From the NCBI RefSeq assembly GCF_000337495.1, contig NZ_AOIS01000016.1, positions 1,418 to 36,705 on the forward strand: 35,288 nucleotides of DNA, in the 5' to 3' direction. Shown one piece after another: positions 31,581 to 35,288 of the stretch. Positions within the stretch are counted from its first letter, which is position 1. Every line of letters starts with the position of its first letter. This stretch comes from Haloterrigena salina JCM 13891 (GTDB taxonomy: Archaea > Halobacteriota > Halobacteria > Halobacteriales > Natrialbaceae). Made by a program: the position numbers and the translations under genes. The notes beneath the pieces are model-generated. The model was not told where the DNA came from, did not search any database, and worked only from the letters and a program-made list of their open reading frames with translations.

Positions 31581-32288
31581 ATGTCCCCTTCCAATCTCAT
31601 ACAGATTGTTTACGTCTACGAGGACGAGATCGATTCAACGGTCACCGACGATGTGCTCGCGTCGCTCGGGCGATAAGGCGGTCGCAGAACGTTCGACAGC
31701 GACTACCACATCGGATACTGGGACGAGAATGGCGATCTGTCCGGTCAGACCGGCGACCGTGATCGAATCGCCGAACTGATGTCGTCCTCTCCGACGTGTA
31801 CAGTGTCCGTAGCGTTCGAGGAGTTCGTACTGTCAGTAGGTCGCGATGCAGGCCGATCCAACCATCTGGAACAGTCACACCTCCTGTTTGACGTCGCGGC
31901 CAGTTCGTTTCGACCAACCGAATCGGTTCCGGACGGAGAGCTCGAAAATCGGAGGCAGACATTCATCGCTATCCTCACAGCCATCGCAGAAACGACGAGT
32001 CCACTCGCCGGATTCGGGCGGGTCGGTGGACCGTGCTTCGATAACTTACCGTCAGCTGCAACGATTCGAAAGGGATCGATCGATTTCCTCTTCGAGTACA
32101 ACGTCTTTAGCGAATCCACAGTTGATCGACTCGGTCGCGAATCAGTACTCGAGACGCCCGCCTGGCACGTCAAAGCACTTTCTACCGGTGGAGCTATGCT
32201 AATCGTTCCGGAGATTCCACGATCGTGCGAGGACGATACACTGCGTTGCGATGGTGTTTCCGAGCACCTCGGACTGCCGATAATCTGA
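31581..32288 (+). pseudogene. Putative immunity paralogue 2, interrupted by an in-frame stop
   Basis: ATG 31581 opens M-S-P-S-N-L-I-Q-I-V-Y-V-Y, which aligns with D-W-I-Q-I-A-F-L-F at the start of the intact paralogue at 32581. TAA at 31674-31676 stops it after 31 codons. The same frame then continues without further stops to 32288, ending E-Y-N-V-F-S-E-S-T-V-D-R-L-G-R ... P-A-W ... G-G-A-M-L ... H-L-G-L. ATG 31779 could still give a 169-residue shortened protein. The stop could be a real nonsense mutation or a base-calling error. Confidence 0.65.
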
Positions 32289-32580: not shown

Positions 32581-33315
32581 ATGGAAGATTACGACTGGAT
32601 ACAGATTGCCTTCCTATTCGATCGGGAACTGTCCCACGAGACCTACGAGTCGCTCTTCGACCTGTTTCTCGAGTACTCGGAAACCGACGACAACCGGGAC
32701 GAACTCGACGACAGGTACGGAGACGAAACGAACGGGAGTCAACGAGTACGTGCCGATGCATCCGAAATCGCTCGTACCGTTCGATCGGTCAGCAGCGTAA
32801 AAGTATCCGTCCCGGTTGGCTGGGACGACATCTCCATCGGATTCAGCCGAAACGGCAGCGGGTTCCCGACCTATGGGTCGACACCGTACTTGACGTTCAC
32901 CACTTGGATCTACGCGCTGAAGGATTCGGACCGAGAACCGCTCGAGCGAGTGAAACGCCGTCGCCGGGAGTTCGTGGAGATCCTCGCTCGAGCTGCAAAC
33001 GTTCTCGAACCCAGGTGGGGCTTCGGCAGACGTGGCGGGCTCGCGATCGGCGAGGACGACACCATCGACGACCTCGCCGCGAGGCTGGCCCCGCCGCTGT
33101 ACGAGTACAACGTCTTCCGGCCCGAGACGGTCGAGACGCTCGGCCGTGAGCGGGTACGCTCGGCACCTGCCTGGTTCGTCGAGGAACTCGACAGCGGCGG
33201 CGCGTTCCTCGCCGTTCGCGAGCCGCCCCGTCAGTGCAGCCCCGCCGCGGAGCCCTGTCTCGAGGTCGCCGATCACCTCGGGATCTCAGTAGGGAAGACA
33301 GATCGGTACCACTGA
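32581..33315 (+). CDS. Putative immunity protein, paralogue 3 (intact, longest)
   Basis: 244 residues, cytosolic, acidic. It shares with paralogues 1 and 2 the C-terminal pattern Y-E-Y-N-V-F-R-P-E-T-V-E-T-L-G-R-E-R, A-P-A-W-F-V, G-G-A-F-L and D-H-L-G-I, plus two cysteines near the end (R-Q-C and P-C-L) also seen in paralogue 2. Its second half has the high G+C typical of core haloarchaeal genes, while the first half is more A/T-rich. A weak box (acatacta, 32548-32555) is about 28 nt before the ATG. I do not know the family; an immunity role is inferred from its place at the end of the toxin locus. Confidence 0.6.
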   Translation: MEDYDWIQIAFLFDRELSHETYESLFDLFLEYSETDDNRDELDDRYGDETNGSQRVRADASEIARTVRSVSSVKVSVPVGWDDISIGFSRNGSGFPTYGSTPYLTFTTWIYALKDSDREPLERVKRRRREFVEILARAANVLEPRWGFGRRGGLAIGEDDTIDDLAARLAPPLYEYNVFRPETVETLGRERVRSAPAWFVEELDSGGAFLAVREPPRQCSPAAEPCLEVADHLGISVGKTDRYH

Positions 33316-33530: not shown

Positions 33531-35253
33531 TTACGCGTCTTGAATCTGCCGTAACACGTCGGGGGCGTCCTCGAGCGCCGCGTCTAAGTCCTCGACGTTG
33601 GGGCCGCCGCCCTGCGCGAAGTCCGGCGGGCCGCCACCGCCGCCACCGACGCGGCCGGCGAGTTCGCCGACGACCTCGCCGGCGTTGACGTCCGAGTCGT
33701 CGGGCACCGCGACGACGAACTGGGCGCCGCTCTGGCCGCTGCCGAGGACGGCGATCTTCCCCTCCTCGACGAGGGCGTTCGCGGTCGCGCGGAGTTCGTC
33801 CATGTCGGCGTCGATGCGGTCGACGACCGCGGTCCGGTCGCCGACGTCGACCTCCTCGCCGCCGCCACCGCCGCCGGCGCGGGCCGCGGCGAGCTGTTCG
33901 GTCAGGTCTTCGATCTCCTTGCCTCGCGCCTTCCACTCCTCGAAGAAGCGTTCGGCGGTCTCGGGGACGTCCTCGGGCGAGACGTCGAGGACGTCGGCGG
34001 CCTCGTAGAGGGCGTCCTCTTTTTCCTGCGTCGACTCGATCGCGGCCTCGCCGGCCGCGAACGTGATGCGCTCGACGCCGTCCTGGACGCGCTCCGTGTT
34101 CAGGATCTTGATCGAGCCGATGTCGCCGGTGCGGGCGACGTGCGTGCCGCCACAGGCCTGGATATCGTCGGCGACCTGGATCAGCCGGATCTGCTCGCCC
34201 GGCGGGATCCCGCCCTGGTAGAGGTCGAAGCCGTGTTCGGCCTCCGCGTCGTGGCGGTCGGGCCAGTCCTGGGCGACCTGGGTGTTGTCCATCACGAGCT
34301 CGTTGGCCAGCGACTCGATCTCCTTGACGTCCGCGCGGGAGATGCGGTCGTAGTGGCGGACGTCGATCCGCGAGGAGTCGACACCCTTCTGGGCGCCGGC
34401 CTGGCGGATGTGCTCGCCCAGCACCTGTCGGGCCGCGTGGATGACAATGTGGGTCGCCGTGTGGTGGCGCATCAGCTGCCGGCGGCGGCCGCCGTCGATC
34501 TGGCCGTTGACGAACTCGCCCTTGCCGGGGTTCTCGTCGGCCCGGTGGAGGATGACGCCGTCCTCGATCTGGACGTCCGTGACCTCGGCGGTCGTGTCAT
34601 CGGTCGAGAGTGTTCCGGTGTCGGCGGGTTGGCCACCACCCTCGGGGTAGAACATCGTCTGATCGAGGACGACGTCGTACCCCTCCTCGCGCTCGAAGAC
34701 GTCGAGCACGACGGCCTCGAACTGGGTGCGCTGCTGGTCGTCGTAGTAGAGCTTCTCGGTCTCCGGGAGATCCTCGAAGCGGTCCTCCTCGTCCTCGTCG
34801 GCCGCCTCGACGGCTTCGGGGGTGTCGTGGCGCTGGGCGACGAGGCTGTAGAAGTCGTCCGGCACGTCGATCTCGGCGCCCGCTTCTTCGGCGATCTCCT
34901 CGACCATGTCCGGCTGGATGCCGTGAGAGTCGTAGAGCTCGATCAGCTCCTCGATCGGGATCGGCTCGCCCTTCTTCGCGTACTCCTCGGCGAGCGTCTC
35001 GACGCGGCGGCCGCCCCGCTCGAGCGTCTCGCGGTACTTCTCGACCTCGGTGCGGACGATGTCGCGGATCGTGTCGCGGTTCTCGTACTCGAGGCGCTCG
35101 GCCTGCATGTCGACGAGTTCGTCAAGCGGCGCGTCGACGCCGGCGTTGTCACAGAGGCGCTTCGTGCGGCGCAGGACCATCCGCGCGAGGTAGCCCGTCC
35201 CGACGTTCGAGGGGACGATACCGTCCCCGAGCATGTAGGCCAGCGTGCGGCAG
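33531..35253 (-). CDS. alaS: Alanine-tRNA ligase, C-terminal part (5' end cut by contig edge)
   Basis: About 574 residues of the archaeal-type enzyme, which attaches alanine to tRNA-Ala and edits mischarged tRNA. The N-terminal catalytic core is missing. The visible part begins [11 protein letters not shown], followed by the tRNA-recognition region. The editing domain has H-H-T-A-T-H-I-V and the zinc-binding C-G-G-T-H. A C-terminal DHHA1 oligomerisation domain follows, with two glycine runs (G-G-G-G-G-G), ending D-V-L-R-Q-I-Q-D-A. The genuine sequence stops at 35253; codons beyond that are adapter. The stop TAA is at 33531-33533. Confidence 0.93.
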
Positions 35254-35288
35254 CTGTCTCTTATACACATCTCTGATGGCGCGAGGGA
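35254..35288. other. Nextera transposon end plus adapter (sequencing artefact)
   Basis: Bases 35254-35272 are CTGTCTCTTATACACATCT, the 19-base Tn5/Nextera mosaic end, and the remaining 16 bases match the older Nextera adapter as I recall it. The sequence is not part of the genome. Translation across it gives the tell-tale M-C-I-R-D-S at the start of the alaS frame and V-S-Y-T-H-L on the other strand. Confidence 0.97.

What the first reader, a model, noticed from the sequence alone, without database searches (positions are those of the whole stretch)
35254..35288. Contig ends in Nextera adapter; the last 35 bases and coding frames through them are artefacts
The 19-base mosaic end is exact. Translating through it creates M-C-I-R-D-S on one strand and V-S-Y-T-H-L on the other, sequences that contaminate protein databases. 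The alaS gene appears to have a start codon here only because of the adapter.
Basis: partly seen in the sequence, partly recalled or inferred. Interest (0 to 1): 0.55.

Follow-up and report, generated by a model that had tools for sequence, protein, structure and literature searches.

The report
Leftover sequencing adapter at contig end
The last 35 bases of this contig are library-preparation adapter left in a draft archaeal genome, so the apparent start of the alanyl-tRNA synthetase gene there is an artefact and not biology.

Summary
Window 35254-35288 is the 19-base Tn5 mosaic end plus 16 bases of Adaptor 1 of the original Epicentre Nextera kit for Illumina, whose sequence is printed in PMC3699833. 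The window's last base is the last base of contig C16. The assembly holds 36 exact mosaic ends: 16 abut a contig end, 20 an N gap, all pointing outward. Four more, truncated by one base at the contig end or gap, are also all at edges. Relatives carry intact 925-residue AlaRS without this sequence. In this genome the true 5' part of alaS (residues 1-283) lies at the start of contig C17, about 205 bases being missing between. Among named genomes the same adapter marks at least 24 haloarchaeal drafts and a Streptomyces/Actinoplanes batch. The paper on the haloarchaeal set reports Epicentre Nextera libraries. Deposited proteins do carry the peptides. I add the kit version, the genome-wide pattern, the missing half of the gene, and false duplications at four gaps. 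Ordinary artefact; low interest.

The parts
35254..35272 (-). 19-base Tn5 mosaic end (library adapter, not genome)
   Evidence: exact match, 0 expected by chance; 36 exact copies in the assembly, all at contig ends or N gaps
35273..35288 (-). 3' 16 bases of Epicentre Nextera Adaptor 1 (GCCTCCCTCGCGCCATCAG), cut by the contig end
   Evidence: sequence identity to Adaptor 1 printed in PMC3699833 (passages); the 16-mer occurs 3 times in the genome, each time next to a mosaic end
33531..35253 (-). genuine 3' part of alaS (from the last base of His352 to the stop), archaeal-type alanine--tRNA ligase, truncated by the contig end
   Evidence: TIGR03683 positions 331-900 of 902, E 6.9e-210; 91-99% identical to intact AlaRS of 5 of 5 congeners; 5' part lies at C17:1-850
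35265..35270 (-). spurious ATG and TGT codons (MC of MCIRDS) supplied by the adapter; false start of the 579-residue ORF
   Evidence: ORF 33531-35270 starts at this ATG; relatives have ...[14 protein letters not shown]... here

Best explanation
The 35 bases are residual adapter from a Tn5-transposase (tagmentation) library made with the original Epicentre Nextera chemistry. Tn5 cut the haloarchaeal DNA inside alaS and joined the mosaic end to the cut. A fragment shorter than the read was read through into the opposite adapter (mosaic end, then reverse complement of Adaptor 1). Shown here: identity of the sequence, exact boundary, position at the very contig end, the same pattern at every other copy, absence from relatives, and the rest of the gene on another contig. 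Inferred: the read-through step and incomplete cleaning.
For: Exact 35-base identity to mosaic end plus Adaptor 1. Contig end. 36 of 36 exact copies sit at a contig end (16) or N gap (20), and in 35 of 36 every base between mosaic end and edge is adaptor 1 or 2; the 36th is adaptor 2 with one mismatch. Both adaptors occur. Relatives: 0 copies in 5 of 5 congeners; 17 of 125 family genomes (this one included) carry any. Named carriers form production batches. The haloarchaeal batch paper (PMC4230888, passages) states Epicentre Nextera and the a5 pipeline; the A5 paper (PMC3441570, passages) says TagDust screens for Epicentre Nextera adapters, a whole-read filter by my recollection, which would leave partly adapter-bearing reads. 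Missing 5' half of alaS at C17.
Against: None found. Not shown: reads across the junction.
Confidence: 0.99

Rival explanations
1. A real transposon: a natural Tn5/IS50 or an engineered mini-Tn5 (mosaic-end) insertion in alaS of the strain.
For: Mosaic ends can be real in engineered strains; the five E. coli genomes with 20-base matches have at least two places each, as paired transposon ends would (inference, not opened).
Against: 36 exact copies, every one ending in a contig end or N run after at most 17 adapter bases, none flanking a transposon body. The sequences beyond the mosaic ends are sequencing-kit sequences. No 9-base target duplication at either of the two face-to-face pairs. alaS is an essential gene (established knowledge) whose other half exists at C17.
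Confidence: 0.002
2. Later Illumina Nextera/Nextera XT adapter rather than the Epicentre one.
For: Same 19-base mosaic end.
Against: The bases beyond the mosaic end are those of Epicentre Adaptor 1 and Adaptor 2, not the later Illumina extensions (letters of the later kit recalled). Sibling records also show the flow-cell extensions TCTACAC and CGGTCT in front of the two cores, as in the printed Epicentre oligos.
Confidence: 0.005
3. A 454 library (the cores GCCTCCCTCGCGCCATCAG and GCCTTGCCAGCCCGCTCAG are also 454 primers A and B, recalled) tagged with Nextera.
For: Core sequences are shared with 454 primers (recalled).
Against: Sibling records show the Illumina flow-cell extensions beside the cores, and the batch paper names the a5 pipeline, which is for Illumina reads. 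Not tested on this genome directly: no copy here extends beyond the core.
Confidence: 0.02

Closest known systems
Epicentre Nextera (Illumina-compatible, v1) Adaptor 1 / Adaptor 2 with Tn5 mosaic end
   Same: 35 of 35 bases identical to the 3' part of Adaptor 1 core plus mosaic end
   Different: truncated: the first 3 bases of the 19-base core are beyond the contig end
Archaeal-type alanyl-tRNA synthetase (TIGR03683)
   Same: residues 353-925 present, 91-99% identical to congeners
   Different: N-terminal 352 residues absent from this contig; 1-283 are on C17

Membership tests
Epicentre Nextera library adapter | exact 19-base mosaic end | tested here: met
Epicentre Nextera library adapter | Adaptor 1 core directly outside the mosaic end | tested here: met
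   16 of the 19 core bases visible, all identical
Epicentre Nextera library adapter | second adaptor present in the same assembly | tested here: met
   C51:2-17 by exact 16-mer; of 36 sites 11 typed as adaptor 2, 11 as adaptor 1 and 14 too short or too mismatched to type
Epicentre Nextera library adapter | found only at contig ends or gaps, pointing outward | tested here: met
   36 of 36; 4 further truncated copies likewise
Epicentre Nextera library adapter | kit recorded for the library of this strain | not testable with these tools
   genome unnamed; the batch paper names the kit for its 59 genomes as one of several library types
Natural or engineered Tn5 insertion | transposon body between two inverted ends | tested here: not met
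   no copy is followed by more than 17 bases before a contig end or N
Natural or engineered Tn5 insertion | 9-base target duplication | tested here: inconclusive
   only one side exists in the window; none at the two face-to-face pairs
Archaeal AlaRS (TIGR03683) | full-length match above the curated cut-off | tested here: not met
   699.6 bits against a cut-off of 744.7 because positions 1-330 are missing from the fragment
Archaeal AlaRS (TIGR03683) | the rest of the gene exists in the genome | tested here: met
   C17:2-850, residues 1-283, E 9.9e-202

The most novel reading that the evidence does not exclude
The adapters are not only cosmetic: because they kept overlapping contig ends from being merged, they created false gaps and false short duplications inside genes across a whole batch of published haloarchaeal draft genomes, so that some reported gene absences and truncations in these drafts are library artefacts.
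Probability: 0.6. Interest if true: 0.25.

Novelty: not a real feature. Interest (0 to 1): 0.1.

Why it matters
It matters only for data hygiene. The alaS entry from this contig should be treated as a 3' fragment with no known start, the two halves of alaS are on C17 and C16, and any gene call touching the 40 adapter places of this assembly is suspect. The same adapter marks many draft genomes from the same production batches and has reached deposited protein records.

Tried and rejected
Literature on the peptides: a search for VSYTHL, MCIRDS, DVYKRQ, CLLYTS gave 3 papers (listing, none opened); none holds MCIRDS or VSYTHL, one holds DVYKRQ (an insertion mutagenesis method) and two hold CLLYTS. 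So I found no paper in this library that names MCIRDS or VSYTHL as a contaminant. Two broader searches on adapter contamination gave listings with nothing specific to this batch; none of those papers was opened. A search for the Doro1 Streptomyces batch method (listing) gave nothing that I opened.

Is the gap in alaS a composition effect? The missing 205 bases in the relative have 66% G+C against 68% for the whole gene: no sign of it.

Do gap-side overlaps reflect real tandem repeats? For C22:58394 the two copies of 75 bases map to overlapping places in relatives (G025 C1:1738350-1738596 and 1738194-1738426; G024 and G027 alike), so one copy is false. For C27:10804 (112 bases) the relatives' matches covered only one side, so this remained undecided. 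The other two were not compared with relatives.

Naming the organism: not done.

Full report
What is there. The minus strand at the right end of the window reads TCCCTCGCGCCATCAG-AGATGTGTATAAGAGACAG-CTGCCGCACG. The second block is the 19-base hyperactive Tn5 mosaic end, exact and the only match in the window with up to 3 mismatches; none of 100 shuffles had one. The first block is the last 16 bases of GCCTCCCTCGCGCCATCAG. The eLife paper on Botryllus (PMC3699833, passages read) prints this as the 3' part of Adaptor 1 of the Epicentre Nextera kit, and GCCTTGCCAGCCCGCTCAG as the 3' part of Adaptor 2. Another paper (PMC3416851, passages) notes that Illumina changed the Nextera adapters after buying Epicentre and discontinued the original kits. 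So the adapter is the early version.

Where it sits. The window is bases 1418-36705 of contig C16 of a 4,840,538-base, 71-contig assembly; C16 is 36705 bases long. The adapter is thus the contig's last 35 bases. The whole assembly has 36 exact mosaic ends, and none of the pattern read backwards. All 36 point outward: 16 reach a contig end and 20 an N run, after 0 to 17 bases. In 35 of 36 every base between mosaic end and edge is adaptor 1 or 2; the exception, at the other end of C16, is adaptor 2 with one mismatch. A looser search (17-base core, one mismatch) adds four copies, truncated by one base or more at the edge: two at contig starts and two beside an N. So 40 of 40 are at edges. Of the 36 first genomic bases after the mosaic end 25 are G, 8 C, 3 A and none T (counted by eye; agrees with 28 MCIRDR and 8 MCIRDS), in line with the known Tn5 preference for G at the start of its target (recalled).

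What it does to alaS. The open frame 33531-35288 (minus) matches archaeal AlaRS (TIGR03683) from position 331 to 900 of 902. All five congeners have an intact 925-residue AlaRS. At the junction they read [14 protein letters not shown] where the window reads [17 protein letters not shown]. The genomic sequence ends with the third base of the His352 codon at 35253; in the outermost 36 bases (that base included) 7 or 8 agree with relatives, against 181-197 of the 200 next bases on the genomic side. The start of the gene is in the same genome on contig C17: residues 1-283 at C17:2-850, minus strand, running off the contig's first base. The relative has 205 bases between the two contig ends. alaS is thus one ordinary gene broken by an assembly gap, and the ATG at 35270 is supplied by the adapter. 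The pairwise alignment of the whole frame with a congener scattered a few adapter residues over the N-terminal part; these are chance placements.

Where else it occurs. In the family, 17 of 125 genomes (this one included) have exact mosaic ends, 10 to 51 each; none of the 5 congeners does, and the reversed control pattern gave none. Of these 80, 33 belong to 24 haloarchaeal assemblies with AO-- accessions, 40 to Streptomyces or Actinoplanes records labelled Doro1, 5 to Streptomyces sp. rh34 and 2 to metagenome bins (counted by eye). In the 120 stretches I examined 137 copies: 117 are pure adaptor up to an edge of the held stretch or an N; of the other 20 most carry further adaptor letters (for example TCTACAC or CGGTCT before the core, the Illumina flow-cell parts of the printed oligos) or small errors, two look like a later adaptor type (L085, L095), and two lie about 90 bases inside (L089, L133).

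How it got there. The PLoS Genetics paper on 59 haloarchaeal drafts (PMC4230888; [quoted passage not shown] coli BL21/pWH1891 origin; its main text does not contain the words adapter or adaptor. The A5 paper (PMC3441570, passages) says that TagDust screens reads for TruSeq and Epicentre Nextera adapters. My inference is that this filter discards reads that are mostly adapter but leaves reads that end in a short adapter tail, and that such reads survive where coverage runs out. That the present genome belongs to that batch is likely but not shown.

Damage beyond the peptides. At 4 of the 20 N-gap sites the sequence after the gap starts with an exact copy of the sequence before the adapter (75, 41, 112 and 24 bases; L022, L024, L025, L028). 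The two contig ends overlap, but the adapter hid it, leaving a false gap and a false duplication. In the relatives G025, G024 and G027 the two sides of the 75-base case map to overlapping places. The same signature shows in deposited proteins: AHK35418.1 of Rhodococcus opacus PD630 and AYJ73801.1 of Pseudomonas phage SaPL each contain MCIRDR between two copies of one segment. VUF54222.1 starts VSYTHL and VUD37918.1 starts VYKRQ. These four were all the annotated proteins that I opened; the other hits were not checked.

Verdict. The finding is a correctly recognised artefact. It is ordinary, with some value for curation.

Noticed in passing
window 1 to about 74; G000:C16:1393-1417 (L009): The window's left edge is bounded by the same artefact: a mosaic end plus a 4-base N gap lies just before window base 1, inside a cupredoxin-like lipoprotein gene. 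The frame reads VEYVCQP-LSLIHIS-gap, where a congener reads TEYVCKPHSSNMVGELQVEG, so the residues that look like copper ligands (His, Met) are lost from the assembled gene (the family and the ligand role are recalled).
   Followed up: partly
G000:C22:58394, C25:22301, C27:10804, C34:26794 (L022, L024, L025, L028): Exact overlaps of 75, 41, 112 and 24 bases across single-N gaps next to an adapter: false gaps with false duplications.
   Followed up: partly
L183 (CP003950.1), L186 (MH973725.1): A plasmid and a phage recorded as complete contain adapter-translated peptides inside annotated proteins, flanked by duplicated segments.
   Followed up: partly
window 31779-32288 and 32581-33315, plus strand: Two neighbouring open frames just before alaS look alike (both contain YNVF, LGRE and PAW in the same order and a DHLG/EHLG-like end), suggesting paralogues; seen in the ORF list only.
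   Followed up: no
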